Source: Formosa algae
GTDB lineage: Bacteria > Bacteroidota > Bacteroidia > Flavobacteriales > Flavobacteriaceae
Length of the DNA stretch: 64,000 nt
Reading direction: 5' to 3'
Assembly (NCBI RefSeq): GCF_001439665.1
Contig: NZ_LMAK01000078.1
Span: 1-64,000, forward strand
Under the pieces are notes generated by a model. The model saw only the letters and a program-made list of their open reading frames with translations. It did not search any database and was not told the origin of the DNA. Shown here one piece after another: positions 3,263 to 43,558 of the stretch. The position numbers were made by a program, and so were the translations under genes. Position 1 is the stretch's first letter; each line of letters starts with the position of its first letter.

Positions 3263-3304
3263 AAGCATTAATAGTGTTTCTCCTTACGCTAATAAAACTG
3301 AATT

Positions 3305-3375
3305 AATTACGGTTTTACTGTAAACACATTAGTCCAAATTGTATTATTTTTAGAATTGTAATTATAACCAAGACT
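3305..3375 (+). promoter_or_regulatory. Conserved upstream box 1 (TTACGG...TTATTTTTAG), array 1
   Basis: TTACGGTTTTACTGTAAA starts at 3307 and TTATTTTTAG starts at 3344, exactly 37 bp later; ATAACCAAGACT follows at 3364. The same three blocks with the same spacing recur upstream of many genes in this window. TTATTTTTAG resembles a Bacteroidota -7 element only loosely, so promoter function is inference. The copy lies directly before the array 1 leader. Confidence 0.6.
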
Positions 3376-3420
3376 CTTTACGGGATAAACAAACGTTTAT
3401 TTAGTATATTAGGAGTTAGC
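3376..3420 (+). other. Array 1 leader, attI-like site
   Basis: The block holds the palindrome ATAAACAAACGTTTAT, then TTAGTATATTAGGAG and ends with GTTAGC at 3415-3420. Close copies start arrays 2 and 3. The bases GTTAGCTTTA just after the leader are the exact reverse complement of TAAAGCTAAC at the far end of the first cassette (3871-3880). This is what integrase-mediated insertion at a G/TT crossover would leave, so I read it as an attI-like insertion site. No integrase is seen. Confidence 0.6.
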
Positions 3421-3429
3421 TTTAATTAA

Positions 3430-3873
3430 ATGACATTCGATAAAATGAATCATATTTCAATGGAATTCACACCTTCTCAACTCGGAGAAACTAAAAAAGT
3501 GTTTTTGAAAAATGGCTCATCAATCTCGACAAAATGGAAAAAAGAGAATGAATATATAATACGTTACAAACCTGAAAATTATGCAGACTATTATTCTCCG
3601 TATTTCTTATTTCAATTTGAAAATAGAACTTTAAAAAGAATGATTCCATATCCAAATAAAAGGTCATTTGGTTATATGACTATTATTATGATTGGATTTA
3701 TATATTTCAAAGGAATTAAACCTGATTTGTATTTGACACTAATTGGTTTTTCAATAGTTTTTGTTTTTTTATTGCAATTTGTTGTTGGAATTGCCGCCTA
3801 TAAGAAAATAAAGAATAATGTTTTCGGAAAGAATATAACGAAAATAAAAGAAACGTCTGAATTAAAAAACTAA
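3430..3873 (+). CDS. Hypothetical two-helix membrane protein, cassette 1 of array 1
   Basis: The 147-residue product has a polar N-terminal ~75 residues (KNGSSISTKWKKENEYIIRYKPENYADYYSPYF) and two hydrophobic helices near 78-97 and 103-124, followed by a basic tail. No family is recognised. ATG 3430 lies 10 bases after the leader's GTTAGC, and AGGAG of the leader lies about 15 bases upstream. The stop codon at 3871-3873 begins the following attC-like repeat, so gene and repeat form one unit. Confidence 0.7.
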   Translation: MTFDKMNHISMEFTPSQLGETKKVFLKNGSSISTKWKKENEYIIRYKPENYADYYSPYFLFQFENRTLKRMIPYPNKRSFGYMTIIMIGFIYFKGIKPDLYLTLIGFSIVFVFLLQFVVGIAAYKKIKNNVFGKNITKIKETSELKN

Positions 3874-4009
3874 AGCTAACACCGTATAAAAAAAATTGCT
3901 AGTTTTAGCTAAACCAAAGTTAGTTGCTCGTTTGCTAGCTTCTGATTTTCCTTCGGAAAATCCTCGCACACAAACACGCAACTTTCCTTATACATAAACG
4001 TTAGCTACA
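3871..4009 (+). repeat. attC-like site 1.1
   Basis: This ~135-bp imperfect palindrome starts TAAAGCTAACACCGTATA and ends TTATACATAAACGTTAGCTACA. The outer arms pair as AGCTAAC/GTTAGCT and GTATA/TATAC, and the inner arms as TTGCT/CGCAA. A perfect central hairpin GATTTTCC-TTC-GGAAAATC lies at 3944-3962. It separates two unrelated genes and matches the other spacers of the three arrays. Confidence 0.75.
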
Positions 4010-4012
4010 ATT

Positions 4013-4477
4013 ATGAAAAAAACAAATTTCGGATTAATTTTAATACTTCTGACTTTCTTTGTTTCCTGCAATGAAAAGAAAATATCGGAATTAAATAATC
4101 GGATTACTGACCTCGAAATTCAAAATAAAAAACTGACCGATTCGATTTCTAAAGCGGACTATTATAAAGTTTTAGGCTCAAACATTGTCGGACTGACTGC
4201 TAAACCTGAATTTATTGTAAATGAAAAAAGTGACGTGAAATTTCTTTTTAATTACCCTGAAAAATTACTGACTTATAATGTTTACACGACTACTAGCGAT
4301 GGAAAACCTGATAAGCTGATTTTCGAAAATCTCACGGATAATAAATTCATGTATAGTTTTATTCCAGAAAAAGTTGGAGAGCACAATATTAAATTAGTCG
4401 CAGTTTTTAAAATGAACAATAAAGAAAATGAAGAAATACACGTTCCGACAAATTTATATGTTACTGTAAAAGAATAA
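4013..4477 (+). CDS. Hypothetical lipoprotein with short coiled coil, cassette 2 of array 1
   Basis: The product starts with a type II signal peptide, FFVSC with the lipidated Cys at residue 19, so it should be anchored in a membrane facing the periplasm. Residues 25-45 (ISELNNRITDLEIQNKKLTDSIS) form a heptad-like coiled coil. The rest looks like a beta-sandwich (VLGSNIVGLTAKPEFIVNEKSDVKFLF). No named family is recognised. It is flanked by attC-like sites on both sides and starts right after GTTAGCTACA, which is partly complementary to its downstream boundary TGTGCCTAAC (8 of 10). Confidence 0.75.
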   Translation: MKKTNFGLILILLTFFVSCNEKKISELNNRITDLEIQNKKLTDSISKADYYKVLGSNIVGLTAKPEFIVNEKSDVKFLFNYPEKLLTYNVYTTTSDGKPDKLIFENLTDNKFMYSFIPEKVGEHNIKLVAVFKMNNKENEEIHVPTNLYVTVKE

Positions 4478-4484
4478 AAAATAC

Positions 4485-4621
4485 TGTGCCTAACAAAGTA
4501 TATAAAAAATTGCTATTTTGTGCTTAATCAATGTGAGTTGCTTTGTTTACTAGTATCCGATTTTCCTTCAGAAAGTCCTCGCATAAAAACTTGCAACTAT
4601 TCTTGTATAAACGTTGCAACC
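4485..4621 (+). repeat. attC-like site 1.2
   Basis: The site runs from TGTGCCTAACAAAGTATA to TTGTATAAACGTTGCAACC. It keeps the TTGCT/GCAAC inner arms and the GATTTTCCTTCAGAAAGTCC centre, which is a slightly worn hairpin. An open frame from 4520 into the next gene is just translated repeat and should not be used as the gene start. Confidence 0.7.
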
Positions 4622-4630
4622 ATTATTAAT

Positions 4631-4870
4631 ATGAAAGATAAATCGACTAAAAAACTAAATAGTGAGTTAAAAATTAAAAAATCAGCAACAATTTCGCTAA
4701 TTATAGTTTTAGCCCTATTGCTTTGCGTCTGTATATACGGATTAATAGCAAAAGAAAATAAAAGCGTTTTTATCTCTTTAATGATTATTCCTTTTTCATT
4801 AAGCTCAATAGTTTTCCTAAATTATAGAAATATGAAAAAAATAAAAAATGAATTGGAAACAAGAAAATAG
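4631..4870 (+). CDS. Small two-helix membrane protein, cassette 3 of array 1
   Basis: I place the start at ATG 4631 (MKDKSTKKLNSELKIKK), because all codons upstream of it lie in the attC-like repeat. The 79-residue product has a charged N-terminus, helices near residues 20-39 and 47-65, and a basic tail. No family is recognised. The next gene starts 10 bases after its stop, with no repeat between them, so both appear to belong to one two-gene cassette. Confidence 0.65.
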   Translation: MKDKSTKKLNSELKIKKSATISLIIVLALLLCVCIYGLIAKENKSVFISLMIIPFSLSSIVFLNYRNMKKIKNELETRK

Positions 4871-4879
4871 CATGTATTA

Positions 4880-5347
4880 ATGAATTACAAAACAATTTTC
4901 CACTATGTAAGTTATTTTCAGTATCCTTTAATGCTAACGGCATTATATTTTTCTTTTAGCCCATACCTTAATGGTCTTGAAGAGATTAAAAAAAACCCTG
5001 ATTTAATTTTTTTAAAGCTGAACTCGGCACTAATTTTTATGGGACTAGGAATGAGTTTTTCGTCTTTACAAGATACCACTAAAACGCAAAACACGTTTTC
5101 AGAGAAGGTTTGGAAAAACCCAAAGAAAGGAAAAATTATGATTATAATATTAAGCTTTATGATTCTATTATTTCTGATATTTGGATTAACAGGATACTAT
5201 TTCGTGAATTCTGGAGTTTTTAAAGAATTATCCATTGGACTTATTATTACCGGATTAGGAATGTTTGGATTTTTAAAATCTGCAATTGAAATGTTTGAAA
5301 ATCATAGAATAGATAAAAACACAGATTACAACAATGGCAATAACTAA
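4880..5347 (+). CDS. Hypothetical four-helix membrane protein, second gene of cassette 3
   Basis: The 155-residue product has hydrophobic helices near residues 12-30, 45-62, 86-108 and 115-135. Its last codons (DYNNGNN and stop) are read from the start of the next attC-like site at 5324, so the repeat supplies its C-terminus. The function is unknown. It is likely co-transcribed with the small membrane gene 10 bases upstream. Confidence 0.7.
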   Translation: MNYKTIFHYVSYFQYPLMLTALYFSFSPYLNGLEEIKKNPDLIFLKLNSALIFMGLGMSFSSLQDTTKTQNTFSEKVWKNPKKGKIMIIILSFMILLFLIFGLTGYYFVNSGVFKELSIGLIITGLGMFGFLKSAIEMFENHRIDKNTDYNNGNN

Positions 5348-5460
5348 TTACTTATTCTCGCCTAATTTTAAAATTCCAAGAACATTTTAAACTTAATATG
5401 TACTTGCAAAATCAAGTGCTGAACCACGCAATTAATATTATTCATAATCCGCTAGCTACC
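5324..5460 (+). repeat. attC-like site 1.3, partly degraded
   Basis: The site starts GATTACAACAATGGCAATAACTAATTAC and ends CATAATCCGCTAGCTACC. It resembles site 2.1 (GGTTACAACAATGGCTATAAG). The centre has lost hairpin pairing and the crossover GTT has become GCT. Its start still matches the end of site 1.2 in complement at 7 of 9 positions. Confidence 0.6.
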
Positions 5461-5491
5461 ATAAAAAACCATATAATTAATAGTAACGTTA

Positions 5492-6319
5492 ATGACATTT
5501 AATACACCTTTTCCTTATAATGCTTCTTTTAAAATTCACATCATTATTGGTGGAATCCTGGGCCTTTTATTAAGTTTTATTTTAATTACGTTACAGCCTT
5601 TCAATTTAAATAATTTCAACCATAAATATGGAGACGTTTTACTTTTAGGTTTTGGGTTAGTAAAATTTTTAAATTATACTGTAGCACACTTTGTAGAAAA
5701 CTACTTTTATAAACTACACAAAAAATGGACACTTTGGAATGAAATAATATTTCTTATCCTATCGTCGCTAACCGGAGCAATTCTTGGTTATATCTATTTA
5801 GATTTAGTTTTCGAAAATCAACCCTTATCATTTCTAAGGCTAATACTCTTTTTATATTATATTGTTTTACCCATTCTGCCTTTACTTATTTTTCCTAAAT
5901 CGGTACTACGTTATCTCATTATTAAAAGTCGAATAAAAGATTTGAATACGAATAACAATGAGAATACTGAGACTAAAGACATTGCATCAGAAAAAATAAT
6001 TTTAACGGGACAAAGCGTTAATGATAAATTGATGATTTTTAAAGAACAACTCGTATATGTAAAATCTATCGATAACTATGTGAAGGTATATTATAGCGAT
6101 GAAAAATTAAAAAGTAAGATGTTGCGAGCTAGTTTATCTGAAATTTTAAACCAAGCCCCATTTCTAATTAAACCACATCGTTCTTATTTAATAAATCCAG
6201 AACATGCATTTAAAATTGAGGGTAATTCTCAGAAAGCAGTGCTTGTCTTAAAAAACCTCAACGAAGATATTCCCATCTCCAGAATGGCGTATAAAGACAT
6301 GAAAGCGGTATTCCATTAG
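5492..6319 (+). CDS. LytTR-family transcriptional regulator with membrane-spanning N-terminus
   Basis: Residues 1-150 hold about four hydrophobic helices (IHIIIGGILGLLLSFILI, EIIFLILSSLTGAILGYIYL, LILFLYYIVLPILPLLIF). Residues ~175-275 match a LytTR DNA-binding domain (KEQLVYVKSIDNYVKVYYS, MLRASLSEILNQ, LIKPHRSYLINPEHAFKI, ISRMAYKDMK). LytTR proteins normally act as response regulators; this version lacks a receiver domain and would be a membrane-anchored regulator of unknown signal. It follows attC-like site 1.3, and 126 bp later comes a hydrolase gene; the two may share a cassette. Confidence 0.85.
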   Translation: MTFNTPFPYNASFKIHIIIGGILGLLLSFILITLQPFNLNNFNHKYGDVLLLGFGLVKFLNYTVAHFVENYFYKLHKKWTLWNEIIFLILSSLTGAILGYIYLDLVFENQPLSFLRLILFLYYIVLPILPLLIFPKSVLRYLIIKSRIKDLNTNNNENTETKDIASEKIILTGQSVNDKLMIFKEQLVYVKSIDNYVKVYYSDEKLKSKMLRASLSEILNQAPFLIKPHRSYLINPEHAFKIEGNSQKAVLVLKNLNEDIPISRMAYKDMKAVFH

Positions 6320-6445
6320 TCCCTTTTGCCTATACAGTTCATACCAAAAACACCTATTTCACCACTAAATACGGCAATCCACAACTCATTTTTTAATGTG
6401 TTTATTTTTTTAGTTTGATTTGTCTCAACATAAAAAATAAACAAA

Positions 6446-7318
6446 ATGAAAAGAGCACTAAAAATTGTAGGTTATGCCATATTACTAATTATAGTTTCGG
6501 GAATAGGATTTGGCATATACAAATATCAGACTGATGATATGTTAAGAGCGATGATTAATCAAGATGAATCAAAACTTTCTTATGGACCGTTAAAAGAGAT
6601 TGTATCATTAGAAAAATTTGATTTTGAAGAATATGAATTAGAAGTAAATGATTCAATCAAAATATACACCTATCTATTTAAGCCGTCCATACAACCAATA
6701 GGGAACGTTTTTTTTATTCACGGTTCAGGAGGTAATGCTGCCTATTGGTCGTCACTATACAAACCACTTATTGATGAAGGATATAATGTATATGCAGCAG
6801 ATTGGCGTGGATATGGTAAATCTACTGGTTCACCTAATTATAGAGGTGTTTTGAAAGATACTGAAGTTGCATTTAAAGATTTTCTAGACAAAACTAAAAC
6901 AGATAGTTTAAAGCATATTGTTTACGGCATGTCGTTAGGGGGACAATTAGCTATTAAAATCACTATGGACAATCAAGAACATGTAGATGCTTTAGTACTA
7001 GATAGCGCTTTAGAATCTGCTCAAAAAATAGCCATCGATTACGCCCCTTTTGAATTTTTAAAAAACAGAGCGAGACATCATCCCGAAAGTTTTAATCAAT
7101 TATATGTGGGTTCAAGAGACATTAAATCGATAAGAAATATACCAAAATTAATCATTCATAGCGCTAACGACTTACAAGTATCTATTAGTCACGGAGAAAA
7201 TCTTTTCAAAAACGCCAACGAACCTAAAACATTTTGGAAAACAGAAACATCTCATATTATGACATTACGAGATGAACCGAAAGAAGCTATTAAAAGAATA
7301 AATAGATTAATACAGTAG
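6446..7318 (+). CDS. Membrane-anchored alpha/beta hydrolase
   Basis: The N-terminal ~25 residues are one hydrophobic anchor. The rest is an alpha/beta hydrolase: oxyanion HGSGGNAAYW near 91, nucleophile elbow GMSLGGQ near 162-168, acid in SANDLQV near 240, and catalytic His in the C-terminal SHIMTL. It resembles the BAAT/esterase type with unknown substrate. The stop codon at 7316-7318 falls within the degraded attC-like site 1.4. The left (5451) and right (7314) boundaries share a complementary GTAGCTA core, so this gene and the LytTR gene may be one cassette. Confidence 0.85.
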   Translation: MKRALKIVGYAILLIIVSGIGFGIYKYQTDDMLRAMINQDESKLSYGPLKEIVSLEKFDFEEYELEVNDSIKIYTYLFKPSIQPIGNVFFIHGSGGNAAYWSSLYKPLIDEGYNVYAADWRGYGKSTGSPNYRGVLKDTEVAFKDFLDKTKTDSLKHIVYGMSLGGQLAIKITMDNQEHVDALVLDSALESAQKIAIDYAPFEFLKNRARHHPESFNQLYVGSRDIKSIRNIPKLIIHSANDLQVSISHGENLFKNANEPKTFWKTETSHIMTLRDEPKEAIKRINRLIQ

Positions 7319-7449
7319 CTACACTGCATATCATTAATTGCAAATACTTGCTTACTTACAAAAATCCACACAGACTTTCAATTTATGATTTATTTGCTAA
7401 CTTTAGGTGTTTTTGAACACGTAACTATTCTATACAAACACGTGGACAT
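7314..7449 (+). repeat. attC-like site 1.4, degraded
   Basis: AGTAGCTACACTGCATATCATTAATTGC starts the site and TATACAAACACGTGGACATT ends it. Between them, CTTGCTTACTTAC, GACTTTC and TTTATTTGCTAACTTTAGG match sites 2.3 and 3.1. The central hairpin is broken and the final GTT has become GTG. Confidence 0.55.
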
Positions 7450-7462
7450 TCATTGAGACAGA

Positions 7463-8299
7463 ATGTTAAAAATGAGAGAAGAAATTTCAGTAAACAAAGC
7501 TATAAACAGAGGACATTTAATTGTAAACATACCCGTTTTCGTATCCATGTTCGGAATTCCTGCTTTGGCACTTTATTTAGCTCAAAATAATTCAATTCCA
7601 AAATGGGGAGTTGTAATTAGTTTTATCATTGGATTTATAGTTGCTTGGTTAGTTTGGAGTTTTATGATAACCAAATGGAGAATTTGGGCTTTCGATAATG
7701 TTAGAAATGTTCACGAATTAAAAAAAAGAGCAATTGCTGAAAAACTTATCTGGAATGATGGGAAAATTTTTGAAAAAACAGAAATAAAAAGTCCTAAGCA
7801 AAAACGAAAACTGAAACTTCTTGAAAAGAAATTTGAGGAAGAAGATGTTTTCAAAGAAGATTTTTCAGCACCAAAATCAAAAACTATATATTATTCTAAA
7901 TCAACGAACTTGATTCAGATGTTTATTATGATAGCTTGTTCAATTCTTGGAATATATCTAATATTAGATTCGGGAAGTTACATAATGGGTTCTTTATTTA
8001 TAATCGGTGGAATTTATTACGCTTATAAAGCTTTCAAAAAAGCTACGATTACAGCACCGCAAATAATAATAAACGACAAAGGAATTGAAACAATACAAGT
8101 GAATTTTAAGAATTGGAGCGAAATTAAAAATGAAGAAGTACTAATTAAAAACAACGGAAATCACGCAAGTGCATATTTAAATTTTGATTTTAAAGAAGGT
8201 TTTGAAAGTTTGCAAATTGACGACTTTGACATTACACCTAAAGACATGGAAAATTTATTAAGAACGTATAGAATTAGAAATAAAAAAAATTACAGCTAA
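7463..8299 (+). CDS. Hypothetical membrane protein
   Basis: The 278-residue protein has two helices near residues 21-41 and 47-68, a long charged coiled-coil-like middle (KKRAIAEKLIWNDGKIFEK...KLKLLEKKFEEED), two more helices near 148-185, and a C-terminal PH-like segment (IIINDKGIETIQVNFKNWSEIKNEEV). No family is recognised. A second ATG at 7472 is an equally good start. It lies between degraded attC-like sites 1.4 and 1.5. Confidence 0.7.
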   Translation: MLKMREEISVNKAINRGHLIVNIPVFVSMFGIPALALYLAQNNSIPKWGVVISFIIGFIVAWLVWSFMITKWRIWAFDNVRNVHELKKRAIAEKLIWNDGKIFEKTEIKSPKQKRKLKLLEKKFEEEDVFKEDFSAPKSKTIYYSKSTNLIQMFIMIACSILGIYLILDSGSYIMGSLFIIGGIYYAYKAFKKATITAPQIIINDKGIETIQVNFKNWSEIKNEEVLIKNNGNHASAYLNFDFKEGFESLQIDDFDITPKDMENLLRTYRIRNKKNYS

Positions 8300-8432
8300 T
8301 ACCTATATAATGACTTGCCATGTTCTTCCTGAGTTGTAAAAATGTCCTCAGAATTAAAAAAACACCCTTAAAATCTTCTAAATTAGTCAATTTAACCTAG
8401 CAACAAATCAGACACAAACAGGTTTCTAAATA
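8293..8432 (+). repeat. attC-like site 1.5, heavily degraded
   Basis: CAGCTAATACCTATATAATGACTTGCC and, 100 bp later, TTAGTCAATTTAACC then GCAAC and ACACAAACAGG line up with both arms of site 2.3. The centre contains TGTCCTCAG but no stable hairpin. The call rests only on these two arm matches. Confidence 0.4.
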
Positions 8433-8497
8433 TTGCAGACCAAACTTAAAAATGAAACAATACTAAATACGCTGAATTGAATACAGTAAAAGCTACT

Positions 8498-8749
8498 ATG
8501 ATAAAAAAAATAATCGGATTTGCCTTTTTATTACTGGCATCTTATCTCACCATATTTTTTATATATAGAATTTCTAAAAACCCGAATACGCTCCTAATAT
8601 TAAAAATTATACTTAGTGGAGACCTTGGGATAAACTGGACTTTAGGAGTTGTTGTTTTCCATGTTTTTTTCTTTTTAATGTTATATCTATTATTCAAATT
8701 TGGACTAAAATGGACAACGTTATACGAACGCAACGCACTGAAACACTAA
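8498..8749 (+). CDS. Small two-helix membrane protein
   Basis: I use ATG 8498 (MIKKIIGFAFLLLASYLTIFFIYRI); a TTG at 8477 in frame would add seven residues. The 83-residue product has a first helix at residues 3-23 and a second near 50-70 (LGVVVFHVFFFLMLYLLFKFGL). No family is recognised. It lies past the last visible attC-like remnant of array 1, and possible traces of one more site lie at 8743-8846. Confidence 0.5.
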   Translation: MIKKIIGFAFLLLASYLTIFFIYRISKNPNTLLILKIILSGDLGINWTLGVVVFHVFFFLMLYLLFKFGLKWTTLYERNALKH

Positions 8750-8870
8750 AACCAAATGCTGTGAATGTTTAACCCGTGGCGAAATCATTCAAATTGAACA
8801 AGATCTATTCACATACGCTGGCAGTAACCACTAACCGTTACATGCTAAATTTAGATTTACAGAAACATAT

Positions 8871-10966: not shown

Positions 10967-11240
10967 TTTAAGTTTAAAAAGCCATACTTATTGGCTATTA
11001 CAACAATTATACTCACAGTGGCTTTAATATATGTGCTATTAACCATTAATCAATAGTCACGGATTGGGGTTTTCAGCAATAAAACAAAACGACAGCTTTA
11101 CCGTAACTAAAAAATTACTAGTTTTAGGTTTATTAATGTCAGTGGCTTTATGTGCTTGCTTCTGATTTCTGAAGCAGAATCTTCACTAAAACACATCAGC
11201 ACTTTTATGTATACCATAACACCCAATAAACCACTTAACT
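10967..11240. other. Intergenic stretch with a start-less TM frame and a solitary attC-like site
   Basis: Directly after the previous stop, 10967-11056 can be read in the same frame as KFKKPYLLAITTIILTVALI and then VLLTINQ, a clear membrane helix with no start codon, perhaps a remnant of a small membrane gene. It is followed by a weak match to the TTACGG upstream box near 11060-11085 and by the solitary attC-like site at 11101-11226. Confidence 0.35.
11101..11226 (+). repeat. Solitary attC-like site, worn
   Basis: CCGTAACTAAAAAATTACTAG starts the site. GTGCTTGCTTCTGATTT-CTGAAGCAG forms a shifted central hairpin (CTTCTG/CAGAAT region), and CTTTTATGTATACCATAACACCC ends it. It matches type I sites such as 2.2 along its length but has diverged. 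It stands between a hypothetical gene and the DsrE-like gene, outside the three arrays. Confidence 0.45.
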
Positions 11241-13780: not shown

Positions 13781-13788
13781 AAATAACT

Positions 13789-13922
13789 GGTTACAACAAT
13801 GGCTATAAGTAATTGCTTGTTCTCGCCTACTTCTGAAAATCCTCGCGGATTTTCAGCTTGGTGTGTACTTGCACAGTTAAGTGCTAACCCACGCAACTAC
13901 TCATAGCCCAACCGTTGGCACC
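13789..13922 (+). repeat. attC-like site 2.1
   Basis: The site runs from GGTTACAACAATGGCTATAAG to CATAGCCCAACCGTTGGCACC, with arms ATGGCTAT/ATAGCCCA and TTGC/GCAA. A perfect 10-bp hairpin, CTGAAAATCC-TCGC-GGATTTTCAG, lies at 13833-13856. Confidence 0.75.
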
Positions 13923-13999
13923 AATTTGACAACTTACGTAAGTTAATTGTAATTGCGTAATAGAATTAAACAGTTGAGCTTTGTAAAAAAATAACAGAA

Positions 14000-14920
14000 A
14001 TGATAATAGAATATAATTTTGCAAATGACTTACTGGAAAGAATAGAAGAAGAGTTAATTAACTATGACGACAAAAACAAAATTCAAGTCATTAAACGCTT
14101 TTCATTAAGTAAACTTGCAAATCTTGAATGGATGAGAAAAAGTCAAGATTTTAGTTTTCCAATTAACTCAAGTGGTTCAACAGAAATTATTCAAATTACA
14201 AAAGAGTTTTACGAACTTCTAGTAAATGGTTGGAAAGAAAAACATCATGAATTAGTGAAAGATGGAATTCCTGCGACAATCGAATCAATGATGGAATCTG
14301 ATTTTCCTGATGAAACTATTCATTCAGCAATTTATGACAAAGTTTCAAGACTAATATATCAATATGATGAAGTATTAAAATGCAGTAAAGAAACCAATGG
14401 CCTTTTTGGAATTGAAGACGAAGAAAAAATATTATTAATTCATCTAAATAAATATAATGAGATTTTAAGTTCTGATTTTAAGCAAATCGAATTTCTACAC
14501 GGAGTTACTTTAAATAAAAAAATCAGTGATTTAATCTTAGAAATTTACATTCGATTTATCAATTTAAGATTAGAAATGCTTAATCCAAAAATCACTCAAA
14601 TTGAAGAACGAAAAACTGAAATAGCAACTAAAATTTTATGGAAAGGAAGTCAAAGAGATTTGTGCGAACTTTTTATCGAGTTGCAAGAAAAAGAATGGAT
14701 TAATGAATTTGAATGGGGAGAACGAAATAAAATGGCGCAATCAATTTGTAACTTATTTGATTTAACTTTAACCAAGAAAAATAAAAACAGTAATGTTGAG
14801 AATTCATTTTACCAAATTTTAAAAGGAACTCATAATCCGAAAACGAAGAAAAGGGAATATGATGAAGTTTTAGGAAATGTGAATGATAGAAAATTTAATG
14901 AAATAAAAAACAGGTGCTAA
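14000..14920 (+). CDS. Hypothetical protein with RteC-like C-terminus
   Basis: The 306-residue product is soluble and mostly helical. Residues ~210-306 (LWKGSQRDLCELFIELQEKEWI, AQSICNLFDLTL, NSFYQILKGTHNPKTKKREYDEVLG) resemble the C-terminal domain of RteC, the regulator of Bacteroides conjugative-transposon excision; the N-terminal 200 residues are not recognised. A role in mobile-element control is possible but unproven. Its stop codon TAA is read from GCTAAC of site 2.2, so the repeat supplies the last codon. Confidence 0.65.
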   Translation: MIIEYNFANDLLERIEEELINYDDKNKIQVIKRFSLSKLANLEWMRKSQDFSFPINSSGSTEIIQITKEFYELLVNGWKEKHHELVKDGIPATIESMMESDFPDETIHSAIYDKVSRLIYQYDEVLKCSKETNGLFGIEDEEKILLIHLNKYNEILSSDFKQIEFLHGVTLNKKISDLILEIYIRFINLRLEMLNPKITQIEERKTEIATKILWKGSQRDLCELFIELQEKEWINEFEWGERNKMAQSICNLFDLTLTKKNKNSNVENSFYQILKGTHNPKTKKREYDEVLGNVNDRKFNEIKNRC

Positions 14921-15049
14921 CACCGTATAAAAATAATTGCGGTTTAGTGCTTAATCAAAGGTCGTTGCTTGTTTTTAACGTCTGATTTTCCTTCGGAAAA
15001 TCCTCGCATACAAACCCGCAACTATTCTTATACATAAACGTTAGGCAAC
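14913..15049 (+). repeat. attC-like site 2.2 (best preserved type I)
   Basis: The site starts GGTGCTAACACCGTATAAAAA and ends TTATACATAAACGTTAGGCAAC. The left arm GTATAAAAATAATTGCGG pairs with the reverse complement of the right arm, GTATAAGAATAGTTGCGG, at 16 of 18 positions. The perfect hairpin GATTTTCC-TTC-GGAAAATC lies at 14984-15002. The two ends differ by unpaired bases, as in real attC sites. Confidence 0.8.
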
Positions 15050-15067
15050 ATTAAAAAAAAACACATT

Positions 15068-15895
15068 ATGTTAAAATGGTACGCAGATAATACAGAACTA
15101 AGTACTGAAAAAGGAAAACCTAATGTTCTAGTATTTGGAGGAGTAATTGTTGACGAAAATTCCGAGAAGAAAATAGAGAAACTTTTACGAGATATTAAAA
15201 GCAAATATACCTATCCTACTCTGCCACTTAAATGGAATTTTAAGGATTTAAAACCAACTTACAAAGAATTTAATCGCTTAAAAGAATATGAAGCACTCTT
15301 AAAAGATTCTTATGAATGGAGAAATGAAATTTTCACAAGGTCATTAGATATAGATTATAAAGTCATACTTGCTTGTACACAAAGATATCCTTCAGACAAA
15401 CCTCTAAGTAAAATAAAAGAGCAATTAACTGAAATTTGTTTTTCTCAATCATTAATGCGAGTAGGAATGTTTGCTAAGCATTTACCGTTCAAAGAAAACT
15501 TTGAAATTATTTTAGATTGGCCAGATGGAAGTAATCCTAAACCTTTTAATAGAGAATATTTCAAAGCCTACAATTTGGGACAATCATCAAGTCAAATAAA
15601 TTATCTTTCAGGACCACTCATTAATCTTGGATTTAATGATAGTCTATATTATGCGAAATCTACTCATTCTGCAGTACTTCAATTTGCTGATTTAGTTATA
15701 GGAGCTGCCAAAGATTTTATGTTAAAGTCTATTCATAATCACGATCATTCATTAGGTTATAACTTAACTTCAATTATATTACCAAAATATCAAGGATATC
15801 CAAATAAAATAATTGAATATGGAATGAATTTTGCACCTAAATCATCTGAATGTTATACTAAAATAAACAATGAAATAAAAAATAACGTTGCCTAA
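15068..15895 (+). CDS. DUF3800 family protein
   Basis: The 275-residue product has the DUF3800 layout: N-terminal WYADNT in place of the usual DESG, FGGVIVDENSEKKIEKLL, an acidic DWPDG near residue 155, and the C-terminal LQFADLVIGAAKDFM. DUF3800 proteins are predicted RNase H-like nucleases and are often found in mobile or defence loci. The change at the first acidic motif retains one Asp. The stop codon lies inside GCCTAAC of the following site, and the cassette ends are exact complements (GTTAGGCAAC and GTTGCCTAAC). Confidence 0.75.
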   Translation: MLKWYADNTELSTEKGKPNVLVFGGVIVDENSEKKIEKLLRDIKSKYTYPTLPLKWNFKDLKPTYKEFNRLKEYEALLKDSYEWRNEIFTRSLDIDYKVILACTQRYPSDKPLSKIKEQLTEICFSQSLMRVGMFAKHLPFKENFEIILDWPDGSNPKPFNREYFKAYNLGQSSSQINYLSGPLINLGFNDSLYYAKSTHSAVLQFADLVIGAAKDFMLKSIHNHDHSLGYNLTSIILPKYQGYPNKIIEYGMNFAPKSSECYTKINNEIKNNVA

Positions 15896-16024
15896 CAATG
15901 CATATATTTTATTGCTAGGTTCTAGCCTGCTTACGAAAGTCCTCGCGGACTTTCTATTCGGTTTTTATTTACTAACTTAGTGACTTAACCACGCAACTAA
16001 CCGTACACAAAACCGTTGTGCAAA
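15887..16024 (+). repeat. attC-like site 2.3 (type II)
   Basis: The site starts GTTGCCTAACAATGCATA and ends CGTACACAAAACCGTTGTGC. The perfect hairpin GAAAGTCC-TCGC-GGACTTTC lies at 15935-15954, and the TTGCTAGG/ACGCAAC arms are kept. The central stem has a different sequence from site 2.2 yet pairs fully. Confidence 0.8.
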
Positions 16025-16027
16025 ATA

Positions 16028-16924
16028 ATGAAAAACCTACTTCAAATAATAATTCTGATATTTAGTTCAACCTTGTTTGGACAAGATTATTATGAAGTCG
16101 ACCTATCCAGAGAAAAACCTAATCTTAAAAATGTTGTTTTAAAAACAAAGACCTTAAGAGATTCAACTGGAATTACAGACTACATTTCAAATATTCAGAT
16201 TTATGACAAAAATGGAATTTCAACATTGGAATTTGATTTGAATAAAAAAGGAGATACTTTAGAAAAAATAACTACTTCTTTTCCTGATAAATATTCTGAA
16301 TTACAAATACATAGTTATTCAAATGCAAAAAGCGACACAGCATATTATTACTATAACAAAAACAACTTTGAGAAAAAGGAAATTTGGAAATGGGGAGATA
16401 ATAATGAAACTGACACTTATGAATTCTTCTTTGACGAAAACAATAGACTTCTAAAGCAAGAAGTTTACTTCGGAGTTGAAAAATCCTGGGATACTCTGAT
16501 ATACAAAAATGACCGAATTACAACAGTTCTTTCCTACGATGACACATTTGAGAGACAAGATTCAATTTCTTATTTATACAACAAAAAAAATCATTTAGCC
16601 AAAATTTTTAAATTTAATTTGGCAAACGAATTACAAGAAACGCAGACTTTTAAAACCAATCAAAAAGGACAGTTTAAAGAAATAATAAAAGAGTTTAAAA
16701 CGTTCGAATGGTCAAAAGACAAAAGGAAACACATAATTCGAATGGAATATCATCTGAACGGAGAATTGAAAACAAAAATTGTAGAGGAATTTATAAATGA
16801 AACGTTAGAAAGTAAAAGCGAACTGAATTTTAACGAATTTGGACTTCTGGAAAAAATCAAAGTAGAAAATCTAACGAAAGGAACAACAAGTGAAAAGAAA
16901 ATTACTTTGCACAACCCCGTGTAA
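16028..16924 (+). CDS. Hypothetical secreted protein with YD-like strand repeats
   Basis: I place the start at ATG 16028 (MKNLLQIIILIFSSTLFGQ, a signal peptide); a TTG at 16016 lies in the repeat. The ~280-residue mature protein consists of repeated short beta units (YNKNNFEKKEIWKWGD, FFDENNRLLKQEVYFG, LYNKKNHLAKIFKF, FNEFGLLEKIKVENL), like the YD/RHS-type or toxin-41-repeat style proteins of Bacteroidota. It is probably periplasmic or surface exposed. Its stop lies in the next attC-like site, and the cassette boundaries match over 14 of 15 bases. Confidence 0.65.
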   Translation: MKNLLQIIILIFSSTLFGQDYYEVDLSREKPNLKNVVLKTKTLRDSTGITDYISNIQIYDKNGISTLEFDLNKKGDTLEKITTSFPDKYSELQIHSYSNAKSDTAYYYYNKNNFEKKEIWKWGDNNETDTYEFFFDENNRLLKQEVYFGVEKSWDTLIYKNDRITTVLSYDDTFERQDSISYLYNKKNHLAKIFKFNLANELQETQTFKTNQKGQFKEIIKEFKTFEWSKDKRKHIIRMEYHLNGELKTKIVEEFINETLESKSELNFNEFGLLEKIKVENLTKGTTSEKKITLHNPV

Positions 16925-17040
16925 AATTAATTGCTATTGCAAGCTTACTTACGAAAATCCTCGCGGATTTTATATTCGGTTTTTATTTGCTAAATTACAT
17001 GCTAAACCACGCAACGTATCATATACAAAACCATATGCAA
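16906..17040 (+). repeat. attC-like site 2.4 (type II)
   Basis: The site starts TTTGCACAACCCCGTGTA and ends CATATACAAAACCATATGCAA. The AAAATCC-TCGC-GGATTTT hairpin lies at 16954-16971. The right crossover GTT is damaged (CCATATGC). Confidence 0.7.
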
Positions 17041-17072
17041 TTAACCAAAAACACAACTAAAATTAGACTTTA

Positions 17073-17736: not shown

Positions 17737-17864
17737 AACGGCATACAACAATGGCTATAAGTAATTGTTAGTTACAGCCTACTTACGAAAATCCTTAAAA
17801 ATTTTATATTCGGTTTTTATTTAAAAAATCAAGACCTTAAACCATACTCTAACACGTTAGCACC
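17737..17864 (+). repeat. attC-like site 2.5
   Basis: The site starts AACGGCATACAACAATGGCTATAAG, like site 2.1, and ends CTAACACGTTAGCACC. The type II centre is worn (GAAAATCCTTAAAAATTTT), and CGGTTTTTATTT matches sites 2.3 and 2.4. Confidence 0.65.
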
Positions 17865-17981
17865 AATTAGAACGCAACAAAATCAATAACTGGCATGAAT
17901 GTCGTAAAAATGTCGTATTTAAACCGTTATCAAAATGGTATTTTCATAATTAATTTTGCCATAAAATAAACGTTATTACTT

Positions 17982-18557
17982 ATGAACGAAATTGGGAAAA
18001 AAATTAGAGACGTTAGAAAGAAAAAAGGACTATCTCAAGAAGAGTTAGCTGAATCTGCAAAAATTAACTTGAGAACTATTCAACGGATTGAAAATAATGA
18101 AAGTGAACCAAGAGGAAAAACTCTGAATTTAATTTGCAAAGTTTTAGACTTAAATGCAGAAGACATTCTAGATTACGGAAAAAAAACCGACAAAAGCTAT
18201 TTAACTTACTTTCATTTGTCTGTATTATTGGGTCTTATTATTCCAATAGGAAATATAGTAATTCCATTTATCTTATGGATAACTAAGAAAGATAAAATAA
18301 TTGATTTGAAAGATATGGGAGCCAATCTTTTGAATTTTCAAATTATTTGGACTTTACTTGCTTTTTTTGGGTTAATAATTGGAGCATTTCTTAAGATTAC
18401 ACATTTAGAAATTGGTCCAGGAAATTTAATACTTTCATTATATTTTTGGCTTTTTCTTTATGTTATAAACATCATTTTACCAATAATATTTGCTATCAAA
18501 GTTAACAAAGGGCAAACAGGAAATTTTTATCCCAACATCATAAAATTAATAAAATAA
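17982..18557 (+). CDS. XRE-type regulator fused to a DUF4870-like membrane domain
   Basis: Residues 4-64 are a Cro/C1-type helix-turn-helix (IGKKIRDVRKKKGLSQEELAESAKINLRTIQRIENNESEPRGKTL). Residues ~75-190 hold four hydrophobic helices with the DUF4870-like LLGLIIPIGNIVIPFILWITKKD. The fusion would make a membrane-bound regulator. The signal is unknown. A clear relative lies in array 3 (42661-43278), so the same cassette family was captured twice or duplicated. Cassette boundaries GTTAGCACC and GGAGCTAAT pair at 7 of 9. Confidence 0.85.
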   Translation: MNEIGKKIRDVRKKKGLSQEELAESAKINLRTIQRIENNESEPRGKTLNLICKVLDLNAEDILDYGKKTDKSYLTYFHLSVLLGLIIPIGNIVIPFILWITKKDKIIDLKDMGANLLNFQIIWTLLAFFGLIIGAFLKITHLEIGPGNLILSLYFWLFLYVINIILPIIFAIKVNKGQTGNFYPNIIKLIK

Positions 18558-18559
18558 CT

Positions 18560-18698
18560 GGAGCTAATATCGTATAAAAATATTGATTAACTTAGTCCTT
18601 AATCAAGAGTTAGTATACTTTTGTAACTCCTGACTTTCCTGCGGAAAATCCTCGCATACAAAACAGCAACGTTCATTACACAAAACCGTTAGGCATAA
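18560..18698 (+). repeat. attC-like site 2.6
   Basis: The site starts GGAGCTAATATCGTATAAAAA and ends ACACAAAACCGTTAGGCATA. The centre, GACTTTCCTGCGGAAAATCC, is a mixed form with GGAAAATCC of type I and GACTTTCC of type II. Confidence 0.7.
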
Positions 18699-18707
18699 TT
18701 TAAAAAA

Positions 18708-19187
18708 ATGATACTGAAACACATTATACTGGGATTTATATTCGGAATTTCAATGTCCTTTATATCTTGGATAGTCGGAATGATTATCAACAGTATTCTT
18801 ATGAAAACGGCATATTACAAAAAGCTATCTAATCTGAATTTTATTAAAAGCAAATCTCTGAATAAAAATATCGGAATCAAATACTTTAAATGGATTGTAA
18901 AAAATACTTTTTTCAAATTTTTTAATCAGAAAATCAAATTAGAAAACAGAAATACCGACTTGACCGTAATTCGGAATGAAATGACTATCTCTGAAATAAG
19001 TCATTTAATCGGATTTATCTTTGTGACCATTTTTGCTATTTACAAAAGCATTGATGTGGGAATATTATTCGGATTGATAATGATGATTCCTAATGTTTTA
19101 ATGAACTTATACCCTTTATTATTACAACAGGAAAATAAAAGACGAATTGACAAAATGATGAAAAGAAAAACAAAAAACTGTAGCTAA
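18708..19187 (+). CDS. Hypothetical membrane protein, possibly CrtO-acyltransferase-like
   Basis: The 159-residue product has helices near residues 5-27, 95-113 and 118-140 and ends with NVLMNLYPLLLQQENKRR. This ending resembles the NxYPxLLQRxNRxR signature of glycosyl-diaponeurosporenoate acyltransferase-like membrane proteins; the match is from memory and weak. Its TAA stop at 19185-19187 lies in GCTAAC of site 2.7. Confidence 0.6.
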   Translation: MILKHIILGFIFGISMSFISWIVGMIINSILMKTAYYKKLSNLNFIKSKSLNKNIGIKYFKWIVKNTFFKFFNQKIKLENRNTDLTVIRNEMTISEISHLIGFIFVTIFAIYKSIDVGILFGLIMMIPNVLMNLYPLLLQQENKRRIDKMMKRKTKNCS

Positions 19188-19314
19188 CACCGTATAGTTA
19201 ATTGCTTTGTTCTTCCCTACTTACGACTATCCCTGCGGAATATTTTATTCGGTTTCTATTTACTAAATTAGGTGCTAAAACGCGCCACTAATCTTATACA
19301 AAACCGTTATAACC
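19179..19314 (+). repeat. attC-like site 2.7, last of array 2
   Basis: The site starts TGTAGCTAACACCGTATAG and ends CTTATACAAAACCGTTATAACC. The centre ACGACTATCCCTGCGGAATATTTT is worn, and CGGTTTCTATTTACTAAATTAGGTGC matches type II sites. The crossover GTT is intact. Confidence 0.65.
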
Positions 19315-19398
19315 AAATTATAACATACATACTACCTAAAAAGGCAACACTCGCAATCAAACATCCAAATTCACATACATAAAATCGCTACAATCCGA

Positions 19399-36490: not shown

Positions 36491-36538
36491 CCGGGATAAA
36501 CGAATGTTTATTTGGTATGATAGGAGTTGGCGGTAAAC
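36491..36538 (+). other. Array 3 leader, attI-like site
   Basis: The block has the palindrome ATAAACGAATGTTTAT, then TTGGTATGATAGGAG and the junction GTTGGCGGTAAAC at 36526-36538. The reverse complement GTTTACCGCCAAC matches GTCTACCGCTAAC at 37134-37146 at 11 of 13 positions. The body is nearly identical to leader 2. Confidence 0.6.
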
Positions 36539-37133: not shown

Positions 37134-37277
37134 GTCTACCGCTAACACCGTATAAAATTAATTGCTAGTCTTAGCCAGTTTACGAAAGTCCTCGCGAACT
37201 TTTTATCTGTGATTTATTTGCTGACTTTAGTACCTGAACAACGCAACTAATCTTATACATAATCGTTAGGTATAAGC
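37134..37277 (+). repeat. attC-like site 3.1
   Basis: The site starts GTCTACCGCTAACACCGTATA and ends CTTATACATAATCGTTAGGTATAAGC. The centre AAAGTCC-TCGC-GAACTTT has one mismatch in the stem. TTGCTAGT/ACGCAACTAA arms are kept. Confidence 0.75.
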
Positions 37278-37287
37278 TAAAAAAACG

Positions 37288-38095: not shown

Positions 38096-38238
38096 GTTTG
38101 CAACTAACACCGTGTAAAAAAATTACTGGTAAAAGCCTATTTACGAAAATCCTCTTAGATTTTCTTGGTTCCTGTTTTATTTATAAATTTTATTGTTTAA
38201 ACTACGCAACTTACCTTACACAACAACGTTACAAGTAA
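38096..38238 (+). repeat. attC-like site 3.2
   Basis: The site starts GTTTGCAACTAACACCGTGTA and ends CTTACACAACAACGTTACAAGTAA. The hairpin GAAAATC-CTCTTA-GATTTTC is fully paired although its sequence differs from other sites. Confidence 0.7.
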
Positions 38239-38269
38239 TTTAAAAAAACCTACAAAAAGAATATAACTA

Positions 38270-39401: not shown

Positions 39402-41177
39402 ATGGCAGTAAAAAACGAAGCAGCCGAACCGAATGCGGAAGTAATTGCGGTATATCCCAATAGAGTCAAAATTTCAGTAGATGATTTAAGTAAATTCTCT
39501 ACGATAGATAGTCAATTAGAAAAATTAAGAGTTGGCTCATACTTAGAAGTTTCAGACGATGATAATCATAAGTTAATTGTTATAATCGAAAGTTACTCTA
39601 TAGAGTATAAAGAAGATAAAATAATAGATAAAGACGGTGAAGAAAGAATTCTAAAAAACAAAAAATATATTATAGAAGCCAATCCACTAGGCACATTAGT
39701 AAATGATAAATTTCAAAGAGGTGGTGATTCACTAACAATTCCACCAACTAAAGTAAGACCTGCAAGTGCTGATGTTATTAAAAAAATATACCAGTCGGAT
39801 GTAACTGAAAACGAAAAATTCTCATTTGCTACACTCCTTACAAATAAAGAGATTGAAGTGCCTGTAAATGGTAATAAATTTTTCAATAAACATTTTGCAA
39901 TTGTTGGTTCTACTGGTTCTGGTAAATCCCATACAGTTGCAAAAGTATTACAGGAAGCTATAAACTCTAAAAATGGTGGTTACAATGGGTTAAATAATTC
40001 TCATATTGTAATTTTTGACATTCACGGAGAGTATAAAAAAGCATTTCCTAGTTCAAATTACATAGACATAAACAATCTTACATTACCCTATTGGCTGCTC
40101 AATAGTGATGAGTTAACAGAACTATTTATTGATACAGATGCAAACGACCATAATCAACGAAGTATTTTTCAAGAAGCAGTAACAATTAATAAGAAAAAGC
40201 ATTCAACAGATAGTGAGGAATTAAAATCAAAAATTCATTTTGATTCTCCCTCATATTTCGACATAATTGAAGTATTACAATATTTGAAATATAGAAATAC
40301 CGAGCTGAAACAAACTGATACATCAATAATATGGATCGACAATGAGGGAGAGTTTACTTTTTCAGAGGAAACCTCTGAGAAACTATTTAATAAGGGACTA
40401 AAAATTAAAAAAGGAAGTGCAACAGGAACGTTAAATGCAAAATTCATAAACTTTATAAATCGATTACAAATAAAATTAAATGACAAAAGATTAGACTTCC
40501 TTCTTGATGAAAAAGCAAAAAAAATATCATTTGAAAATACCATTAAGCAATTCATTGGTTATAACAAAGAAGAAAGTAAAAACTCAAATATTACAATCAT
40601 TGATTTAGGGGGTATTCCGTTTGAAGCATTAAGTATAACTGTTTCTCTGATTTCAAGGATGCTTTTCGAGTTTGGTTTTTATTACAAAAAAAAATTAAAT
40701 GAAGACATTGATTGTGAAACTCCCATTTTACTACTTTATGAAGAAGCTCATAAATACGTTCCTAAAAGCGACCTAGTAAAATACAGATCTTCTAAGGCTG
40801 CAATTGAAAGAATTGCTAAAGAAGGCCGAAAATATGGTGTAACTCTTGGCATAGTAAGTCAAAGACCTTCCGAAGTGTCAGAAACAATATTCTCGCAATG
40901 TAATACATTTATAGCAATGAGATTGACTAACCCAGATGACCAAAATTATGTAAAAAAGTTATTACCTGATACTATGGGAAATATGACAGAGATGTTGCCT
41001 TCTTTAAAAGCAGGTGATGCTTTACTTGTTGGAGAGTCTATTGCTATTCCATCACTAGTTCACTTGAACGAATGCTCTCCTTCCCCAAAATCATCTGACA
41101 TTAAATACATTGAAGTTTGGAAAGAAAAATGGAAAGATGTAGACTTTGACGATATAATAAAAGAATGGAAAAAATAA
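39402..41177 (+). CDS. HerA-family hexameric ATPase (defence partner)
   Basis: Residues ~10-120 form a HAS-type barrel (AEVIAVYPNRVKISVDDL...GSYLEVSDDDNHKLIVIIESYSIEY). The AAA-like RecA domain follows: Walker A GSTGSGKS at 169-176, IVIFDIHGEYKKAFP, a Walker B-like LLLYEEAHKY at 443-452 with Glu447/448, and the HerA signature GRKYGVTLGIVSQRPSEVSETIFSQCNTFIAMRL. HerA works as a ring-shaped DNA translocase. Paired with the upstream DUF4297-like nuclease gene, it is likely a defence complex. The 591-residue length is usual. Confidence 0.9.
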   Translation: MAVKNEAAEPNAEVIAVYPNRVKISVDDLSKFSTIDSQLEKLRVGSYLEVSDDDNHKLIVIIESYSIEYKEDKIIDKDGEERILKNKKYIIEANPLGTLVNDKFQRGGDSLTIPPTKVRPASADVIKKIYQSDVTENEKFSFATLLTNKEIEVPVNGNKFFNKHFAIVGSTGSGKSHTVAKVLQEAINSKNGGYNGLNNSHIVIFDIHGEYKKAFPSSNYIDINNLTLPYWLLNSDELTELFIDTDANDHNQRSIFQEAVTINKKKHSTDSEELKSKIHFDSPSYFDIIEVLQYLKYRNTELKQTDTSIIWIDNEGEFTFSEETSEKLFNKGLKIKKGSATGTLNAKFINFINRLQIKLNDKRLDFLLDEKAKKISFENTIKQFIGYNKEESKNSNITIIDLGGIPFEALSITVSLISRMLFEFGFYYKKKLNEDIDCETPILLLYEEAHKYVPKSDLVKYRSSKAAIERIAKEGRKYGVTLGIVSQRPSEVSETIFSQCNTFIAMRLTNPDDQNYVKKLLPDTMGNMTEMLPSLKAGDALLVGESIAIPSLVHLNECSPSPKSSDIKYIEVWKEKWKDVDFDDIIKEWKK

Positions 41178-41314
41178 AACAGTAACACCATATATAATTT
41201 ATTGCTAGTTCTAGCCTACTCACTAAAACCCTCGGACTTTATATCTGTAATTTATTTAAGAGCTTTAGTAAATAAAGACGCCACTAATCATACATAAAAT
41301 CGTTAGGCAAAATT
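41177..41314 (+). repeat. attC-like site 3.3
   Basis: The site starts AAACAGTAACACCATATA and ends CATACATAAAATCGTTAGGCAAAATT. The centre ACTAAAACCCTCGGACTTTATAT is worn. Its start matches the end of site 3.2 at only 6 of 10. Confidence 0.65.
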
Positions 41315-41366
41315 CTAGTTAACTACGTGATAAATAAAAACCAAAAAAAATATATTCATAAATTTT

Positions 41367-42508: not shown

Positions 42509-42556
42509 AACTTTACCTAACACCGTATACAATTTATTGCTAGTTGTATGCCATTT
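42509..42556 (+). repeat. attC-like site 3.4, truncated
   Basis: AACTTTACCTAACACCGTATACAATTTATTGCTAG opens as in other sites, and its start complements the end of site 3.3 at 11 of 13. From 42547 the sequence diverges; the hairpin and right arm are missing apart from ACGCAACC at 42601-42608. It looks like a deletion inside the site. Confidence 0.6.
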
Positions 42557-42660
42557 GAGCCGAACATTGGCGAAAATGTCATAAGATTGACATAGAAATG
42601 ACGCAACCAATAGAACAATTAGAAAATATCTTTGCTGAGTAATCATTAAAATATATTAAA

Positions 42661-43278: not shown

Positions 43279-43284
43279 AAAAAA

Positions 43285-43427: not shown

Positions 43428-43558
43428 CTATTCTTAATGAAAAATTCTCTAAATGTGCACAAAAGAGATTATCGGAATTAGAATCTGGAAGTAAGAAAAC
43501 CGCATCATCAAAGCAATACATTCGAGTTAATTGCAAATTTGTAACAATATTTTGTTTT
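43428..43558 (+). pseudogene. Possible remnant of an XRE-like antitoxin gene
   Basis: In one frame the bases read NSILNEKFSKCAQKRLSELE, GSKKTASSKQYIRV and a stop at ~43558. The part RLSELESGSKK resembles helix three of a Cro/C1 domain. There is no start codon or complete domain. It is a weak remnant call. Confidence 0.25.

What the first reader, a model, noticed from the sequence alone, without database searches (positions are those of the whole stretch)
3376..8846. Decay gradient away from the array 1 leader
Sites 1.1 and 1.2 next to the leader are well preserved, 1.3 has lost GTT, 1.4 lost its hairpin, 1.5 is barely visible and traces at 8743-8846 are doubtful. This order fits insertion of new cassettes at the leader and ageing of distant ones, as in integrons. 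Arrays 2 and 3 show a milder version of the same trend (2.7, 3.4 and 3.5 worn).
Basis: partly seen in the sequence, partly recalled or inferred. Interest (0 to 1): 0.55.

Follow-up and report, generated by a model that had tools for sequence, protein, structure and literature searches.

The report
Gene-cassette arrays wear with distance
In a marine Formosa bacterium, strings of captured genes tend to be freshest beside a conserved entry site and more worn further away, and matching end sequences on each captured gene act as a rough built-in clock that shows the same order.

Summary
The gradient is real as a trend, less clean than described. With profiles trained without this genome, array 1 site quality runs 1.01, 0.63, 0.35, 0.47, 0.10, and 0.12 for a missed remnant at 11.1 kb: 1.4 beats 1.3, and 8743-8846 holds nothing. 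Array 2 trends weakly (p=0.043), array 3 does not (p=0.35).

An independent clock agrees. The two ends of a cassette are complementary when it arrives: 496 of 679 still match 6/6, against 2.1% of shuffled pairs. In five leader arrays outside the window the match (p=0.00005) and site quality (p=0.004) both fall with order. Long arrays mostly stay matched for tens of cassettes and fall mainly in the tail, so this is no smooth law of distance.

The system works like an integron: attC-like sites with predicted bottom-strand hairpins, attI-like leaders, whole cassettes recurring between arrays. Its recombinase lacks the IntI-specific domain, so I do not file it as a standard integron. Genus Formosa; the recombinase is common in Flavobacteriaceae. 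Ageing after insertion at the leader is my best reading; survivorship of cassettes that can no longer be excised is the main rival.

The parts
3293..3418 (+). Leader 1: upstream repeat element (3293-3370) and attI-like motif GGATAAAC..GTTTATTT..GGAGTT (3383-3418); GTT junction at 3415
   Evidence: the first cassette's end barcode fits this GTT 6 of 6
3869..4014 (+). Site 1.1, type A, intact
   Evidence: R2 167.2 bits; quality 1.01; end match 10
4483..4629 (+). Site 1.2, type A, worn
   Evidence: R2 122.6 bits; quality 0.63; end match 6
5321..5465 (+). Site 1.3, type B, GTT changed to GCT
   Evidence: R1 58.3 bits; quality 0.35; end match 5
7312..7456 (+). Site 1.4, type B; better preserved than 1.3; its barcode still fits 1.3 once a lost base is allowed
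   Evidence: R1 84.3 bits; quality 0.47; end match 7
8304..8424 (+). Site 1.5, faint remnant
   Evidence: 13.0 bits; 0 of 200 shuffles reach 13; end match 3
11089..11230 (+).
   Evidence: R2 33.8 bits, E 4.5e-5; 16.5 bits
12448..12573 (+). Leader 2 (upstream element and attI-like motif at 12538-12573)
   Evidence: first barcode 6 of 6
13786..13928 (+). Site 2.1
   Evidence: quality 0.91
14910..15054 (+). Site 2.2, type A
   Evidence: R2 165.6 bits; quality 0.97
15885..16029 (+). Site 2.3
   Evidence: quality 0.90
16904..17047 (+). Site 2.4, GTT lost
   Evidence: quality 0.78; R'
17738..17870 (+). Site 2.5, the most worn of array 2
   Evidence: quality 0.46
18557..18702 (+). Site 2.6, type A
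   Evidence: R2 122.2 bits; quality 0.68
19177..19320 (+). Site 2.7
   Evidence: quality 0.73
36494..36529 (+). Leader 3 attI-like motif (an upstream-element copy lies apart at 36191-36267)
   Evidence: first barcode 5 of 6
37135..37279 (+). Site 3.1
   Evidence: quality 0.68
38097..38242 (+). Site 3.2
   Evidence: quality 0.52
41175..41316 (+). Site 3.3
   Evidence: quality 0.48
42510..42632 (+). Site 3.4, truncated
   Evidence: quality 0.12
43284..43429 (+). Site 3.5, body sound, GTT changed to GCT
   Evidence: quality 0.68; R'

Best explanation
The arrays are integron-like cassette arrays. A tyrosine recombinase encoded elsewhere in the genome (contig C11) inserts cassettes at the G|TT of attI-like leaders, in trans. 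Each new cassette enters beside the leader and pushes older ones away. In the excised form the cassette's attC-like site is closed by a 6-7 base barcode complementary at its two ends. Once inserted, these ends lie hundreds of bases apart and drift independently, so their mismatch counts time since insertion. In slow arrays such as the three in the window, site quality and end match therefore both fall with distance from the leader. In busy arrays, where cassettes are still exchanged, most clocks are fresh and mainly the far tail ages. Shown here: matching cassette ends, whole cassettes recurring in other arrays, predicted bottom-strand hairpins, leader junctions that fit, both trends. Inferred: that this recombinase does it, that entry at the leader and drift cause the trends.
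For: Cassette ends match 6/6 in 496 of 679 against 2.1% of shuffled pairs; the two ends of one site do not match (2.26 of 6, 423 sites) while the two ends of one cassette do (5.76 of 6, 401 cassettes) in four genomes. End match falls with order: window p 0.005-0.007, own leader arrays p 0.0001-0.0002, five arrays outside the window p 0.00005. Quality with profiles trained without this genome: window p 0.0037, all leader arrays p 0.0002, outside the window p 0.004. Quality and end match correlate (rho 0.27, 679 cassettes). First cassette fits the leader's GTT in 7 of 8 own leader arrays. Two G014 arrays about 530 kb apart share whole cassettes, 12 pairs at 99% or more, one of 1677 bases identical, and start with near-identical attI-like DNA although only one close integrase is found. 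25 of 27 integrase loci held have sites downstream on the same strand; the other two hold under 250 bases there. Bottom-strand hairpins: z below -2 in 93 of 94 G014 cassettes in circle form.
Against: Array 1 is not monotonic and array 3 has no quality trend. Without first cassettes the window alone gives p 0.07-0.12. Long arrays lack a smooth slope: p 0.26 for end match without G101 and the last five cassettes; only 1 of 15 long arrays is significant alone by quality. G149_s1 and G045_C1 go the other way in end match. One own leader array (C7) and two G151 leaders do not fit their first site. Most window sites do not fold better than shuffles (3 of 17 sites tested were beaten by none of 200). 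No recombination has been observed.
Confidence: 0.65

Rival explanations
1. Survivorship (lock-in): cassettes with working sites keep being excised and lost, while cassettes whose sites break cannot leave. Worn cassettes then gather at the far end because their sites broke, not because entry order sets the wear.
For: Quality and end match go together (rho 0.27), and long arrays keep a fresh body with a worn tail, as lock-in would also give.
Against: The end barcode belongs to two different sites while the cassette is in the array (within-site match 2.26 of 6, near the shuffled 2.16), so its drift should not by itself stop excision, yet it falls with order. Age and lock-in can act together.
Confidence: 0.25
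2. Leader arrival: the leaders were recently copied in front of old cassette remnants, so only the cassettes captured since then are fresh.
For: This genome has 10 leader copies against 0, 0, 1, 1 and 4 in the five other Formosa genomes; three leader copies (C81 twice, C7) are nearly alike over more than 100 bases.
Against: The wear is graded over several cassettes rather than stepped in several arrays, and leaders in G151 and G014 have diverged.
Confidence: 0.1
3. Chance and selective reading of a few sites; no gradient exists.
For: Array 1 has only six sites, array 3 gives no quality trend, and per-array tests were not corrected.
Against: Both measures repeat in five arrays outside the window (p 0.00005 and 0.004), and 14 of 15 long arrays have negative quality correlations.
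Confidence: 0.03

Closest known systems
Integrons (intI, attI, attC), including sedentary chromosomal integrons
   Same: Arrays of cassettes in one orientation; sites with R-boxes of the form CTAAC...GTTAG; crossover inferred at G|TT; cassette ends complementary; predicted bottom-strand hairpins; recombinase gene with an attI-like region in front of the array.
   Different: The recombinase lacks the IntI-specific domain region and is below the integron-integrase cut-off; end barcodes are 6-7 variable bases; several attI-like leaders lie far from the recombinase gene.
CALIN (clusters of attC lacking an integrase; PMC9024848, PMC8618304, PMC12444791, passages seen)
   Same: The window arrays have sites and no integrase nearby.
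   Different: They begin with conserved attI-like leaders and seem served in trans; CALINs are described as degraded integrons or off-target insertions.
XerA/XerC-type tyrosine recombinases
   Same: Nearest by sequence (XerA 5hxy) and by Foldseek E-value.
   Different: An extra N-terminal part of about 100 residues and cassette arrays downstream; by TM-score IntI4 (2a3v, 0.56) is closer than XerA (0.37).
Dating of LTR retrotransposons by divergence of their two ends (recalled, as a working analogy)
   Same: Two ends equal at insertion, drifting afterwards.
   Different: Only 6-7 bases per cassette, so this clock is coarse and works on averages.

Membership tests
Integron | Integrase with the IntI-specific additional domain (PMC9668308, passages) | tested here: not met
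   Between aligned blocks the recombinase has 23 residues where IntI4 has 66; TIGR02249 189, 222 and 194 bits in 3 of 3 proteins against a cut-off of 265. NF040815, titled tyrosine recombinase/integron integrase, passes in 1 of the 3.
Integron | Tyrosine recombinase with the catalytic residues | tested here: met
   R239, K264, H328, R331, H354, Y363 invariant in 28 aligned proteins (catalytic roles recalled); PF00589 131 bits.
Integron | attC sites with RYYYAAC and GTTRRRY boxes in tandem arrays of cassettes in one orientation | tested here: met
   cassette-end complementarity 496 of 679 at 6 of 6.
Integron | attC folds into a hairpin from its bottom strand | tested here: met
   By prediction only, in G014: 94 cassettes, mean z -3.2 in array form and -5.1 in circle form; bottom more stable than top in 91 of 94. 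In the window only 3 of 17 sites beat all 200 shuffles.
Integron | attI beside the integrase gene | tested here: inconclusive
   A region behind the C11 gene resembles the leaders (an inverted GGATAAAC motif, then GTATATAACTAGTT), and G014 has a near-copy at a second array; its use as attI is inferred.
Integron | Cassettes move as units by integrase action | tested here: inconclusive
   Whole cassettes recur between arrays of one genome: G014 14 of 57 against 15 of 49, G113 40 of 96 against 12 of 26 at 90% identity or more. The reaction was not observed.
Integron | Cassette promoter Pc ahead of the array | not tested
   The upstream repeat element may be a promoter, but it also stands before ordinary genes.
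CALIN | Two or more attC without an integrase nearby | tested here: met
   Window arrays; the best integrase matches of this genome lie on other contigs. IntegronFinder itself was not run.

The most novel reading that the evidence does not exclude
Flavobacteriaceae carry their own integron-like lineage, run by a XerA-like recombinase without the IntI domain and therefore easy for IntI-based searches to miss. One enzyme feeds several attI-like leaders in trans, and each cassette carries a complementary end barcode that works as a clock of its time in the array.
Probability: 0.65. Interest if true: 0.85.

Novelty: new variant of a known kind. Interest (0 to 1): 0.7.

Why it matters
How cassette arrays grow, shuffle and decay is mostly inferred from array order. 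Here each cassette gives a readout of time since insertion that does not rest on site quality, so growth at the leader, shuffling and lock-in can be compared over many genomes. It also points to a large cassette system in marine flavobacteria: in the passages seen, IntegronFinder 2.0 names Salinibacter ruber M1 as the Bacteroidetes genome with a complete integron (PMC9024848).

Tried and rejected
Consensus folding of all 16 sites gave no pairs, so I set the pairs of R1 and R2 by hand from the complementary ends; both models lean on that choice. Rfam gave no match. The trace at 8743-8846 was dropped. TTACGG(N4)CCGTAA, read from the upstream element, is not enriched in the genome (100 against 149 per strand for the reversed pattern). 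A first count of end matches at fixed offsets gave 1.4 a score of 0 because of a lost base; local alignment corrected this. The fixed-offset count in its later form gives the window p 0.012, and 0.11-0.12 without first cassettes. I considered tying worn arrays to integrase loss: the close integrase of G151 has two stops, but a distant relative stands beside its main array, so I make no such claim. The genes flanking array 1 have no relative at E 1e-60 in the five other Formosa genomes, so no empty-site or shared-cassette comparison was possible.

Left out before counting: sites under 12 bits, hits on the minority strand of a region, and cassettes with gaps outside 100-2500 bases (65 of 744; repeated with gaps up to 4500 and without a gap limit). 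For several long arrays the start is set by site strand, not by a leader that was seen. Genome searches with R1 scored 150 candidates a genome, so counts are lower bounds, and the lists were cut.
Full report
What was examined. The window is the first 64 kb of contig C78 of a 4.29 Mb genome in 82 contigs. The genus is Formosa: genome G151 of the same genus has the contig length and integrase position of Formosa sp. L2A11, NZ_CP047028.1. The finding concerns array 1 and, in milder form, arrays 2 and 3.

The sites. Type A (1.1, 1.2, 2.2, 2.6) and type B sites share their ends and differ in the middle. I built a covariance model for each (R1, R2). R1 finds 59 places in this genome at E up to 1, with 150 candidates scored. 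Since both models contain window sites, the gradient was tested with profiles trained on other genomes only; quality is the score relative to the 90th percentile of its type.

Quality against order. Array 1: 1.01, 0.63, 0.35, 0.47, 0.10, 0.12 (p 0.005; the last value is the remnant at 11.1 kb, whose membership is assumed). Array 2: 0.91, 0.97, 0.90, 0.78, 0.46, 0.68, 0.73 (p 0.043). Array 3: 0.68, 0.52, 0.48, 0.12, 0.68 (p 0.35). All three p 0.0037; arrays 2 and 3 together p 0.09; own leader arrays without array 1 p 0.015; all leader arrays p 0.0002. Bottom-strand folding, as z against shuffles, points the same way in array 1 (-3.6, -0.6, -0.8, 0.0, 0.8) and array 2 (-4.0, -4.1, -1.6, -1.9, 0.6, -0.7, 1.0), not in array 3 (-0.2, 0.6, 1.1, -0.7, 0.1).

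A second measure. In integrons a cassette begins just after the G of GTT and ends at the next such G (recalled). The bases after GTT of site n-1 and those before AAC of site n then come from one excised site and must be complementary on arrival. They are: 496 of 679 cassettes match 6 of 6 against 2.1% of shuffled pairs, whose mean is 2.16. In four genomes the two barcodes of one site do not match (2.26 of 6, 423 sites) while the two ends of one cassette do (5.76 of 6, 401 cassettes). This fixes the cassette boundaries and gives a clock that starts at insertion.

The clock against order. Local match scores are 10, 6, 5, 7, 3, 4 in array 1; 10, 7, 10, 10, 5, 7, 5 in array 2; 8, 5, 5, 8, 3 in array 3. 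Window p 0.005-0.007, but 0.07-0.12 without first cassettes; own leader arrays p 0.0001-0.0002. In five leader arrays outside the window (three of this genome, one of G014, one of G151; 23 cassettes) the clock falls with p 0.00005, 0.003 without first cassettes, and quality with p 0.004, 0.04 without first cassettes. The three of this genome alone give clock p 0.004 and quality p 0.046.

Long arrays. Fifteen arrays of at least 12 sites in eleven genomes were examined. Quality correlates negatively with order in 14 of 15, but only G101 is significant alone; pooled p 0.0013 over 608 sites, 0.002 without the last five sites of each. For the clock, 12 of 15 are negative, one is 0.00 and two are positive (G149_s1, G045_C1); pooled p 0.0002; without G101 0.0004; without G101 and the last five cassettes 0.26. 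G014, G113, G068 and G045 stay at 6 of 6 over long stretches. So a mostly fresh body with an aged tail is the common picture, and short leader arrays look like tails. G101 has a real slope (rho -0.40, p 0.002).

What may run it. One full-length tyrosine recombinase of 400 residues lies at C11:228867-230069, with an attI-like region and sites directly behind it. Of 27 integrase loci held, 25 have sites downstream on the same strand, the first within 3 kb in 21; the other two hold under 250 bases there. None has a site upstream on that strand, though little upstream DNA was held at many loci. Some first sites are weak, and two of the 27 are distant relatives (34% identity). Matches at E 1e-60 occur in 54 of 149 family genomes; these include distant ones down to 33% identity, and arrays were not checked in all. 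Among named genomes the 80 loci kept are titled Lutibacter, Polaribacter, Winogradskyella, Tenacibaculum and others. By sequence the nearest solved structure is XerA, with IntI4 third. For the predicted fold (mean pLDDT 84, pTM 0.58) XerA has the best E-value but IntI4 the higher TM-score, 0.56 against 0.37. The region that carries the extra domain in IntI is short: 23 residues against 66; integron-integrase score 189 bits against a cut-off of 265.

Leaders in trans. The leader motif occurs 10 times in this genome, 4 times in G151, once each in G149 and G014, not in G150 and G152; the reversed control gave 0. First-cassette barcodes fit the leader's GTT with 5 or 6 of 6 in 7 of 8 own leader arrays that have a site, and in 8 of 11 over all genomes. 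In G014 a second array of 50 sites, about 530 kb from the integrase, starts with a near-copy of the integrase's attI-like region, one difference from 34 bases before the motif to the GTT; the only other match at E 1e-30 in G014 is a 31% relative inside the first array. Whole cassettes at 90% identity or more recur between the two arrays: 14 of 57 against 15 of 49, 12 pairs at 99% or more, one of 1677 bases identical; in G113 40 of 96 against 12 of 26 (only cassettes of 200-4500 bases were compared, and multi-copy cassettes add pairs).

Hairpins. For 94 G014 cassettes that passed the end and gap filters, mean z is -3.2 in array form and -5.1 when closed with the cassette's own start; z is below -2 in 79 and 93; the circle form is more stable in 86 and equal in 8; bottom beats top in 91. 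These are predictions. In the window only 3 of 17 sites beat all 200 shuffles, in line with wear.

Reading. Entry at the leader, drift afterwards and renewal by exchange in busy arrays explain both the window trend and the flat long arrays. Survivorship of cassettes that can no longer leave remains a serious rival and may act together with age. Cassettes with low end match also hold a smaller open frame (median share 0.56 for 93 with match 5 or less, 0.95 for 549 with 8 or more), though missed sites could cause part of this, and frames in worn window cassettes are mostly whole.

Literature. Searches of the open library showed no paper on such a system in Flavobacteriaceae; subscription papers and preprints are not covered. 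I saw passages only of PMC9024848, PMC8618304, PMC9668308, PMC12444791, PMC9892861 (a Polaribacter phage with attC, one of its two sites named active with IntI1), PMC8946536 and PMC11023631. Bacteroidota are listed among phyla with integrons in PMC8618304 and PMC9668308.

Noticed in passing
window 38270-41177: Cassette 3.3 carries a DUF4297 and HerA pair that matches PADLOC defence models (E 3e-50 and 8e-264): a defence-like system inside a cassette.
   Followed up: partly
window 17982-18557 and 42661-43278: Two cassettes in different arrays carry proteins of the same make-up, HTH_3 plus DUF4870.
   Followed up: no
window 20046, 22440, 23339, 27312, 30198 (start positions): The 78-base element found in leaders 1 and 2 (ATTACGGTTTTAC ... 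TTATTTTTAG) also occurs away from the arrays, upstream of ordinary genes; perhaps a shared promoter or regulator site.
   Followed up: partly
G000 contigs C5, C11, C24, C71: Several contigs end inside or close to arrays, so the assembly probably breaks at repeated sites and the true number of sites is likely higher.
   Followed up: no
G014:C1:2765954-2766727: A 31% relative of the recombinase lies inside the main G014 array, perhaps as part of a cassette.
   Followed up: no
G014 main and second arrays: A cassette of about 558 bases is present in many near-identical copies in both arrays.
   Followed up: no
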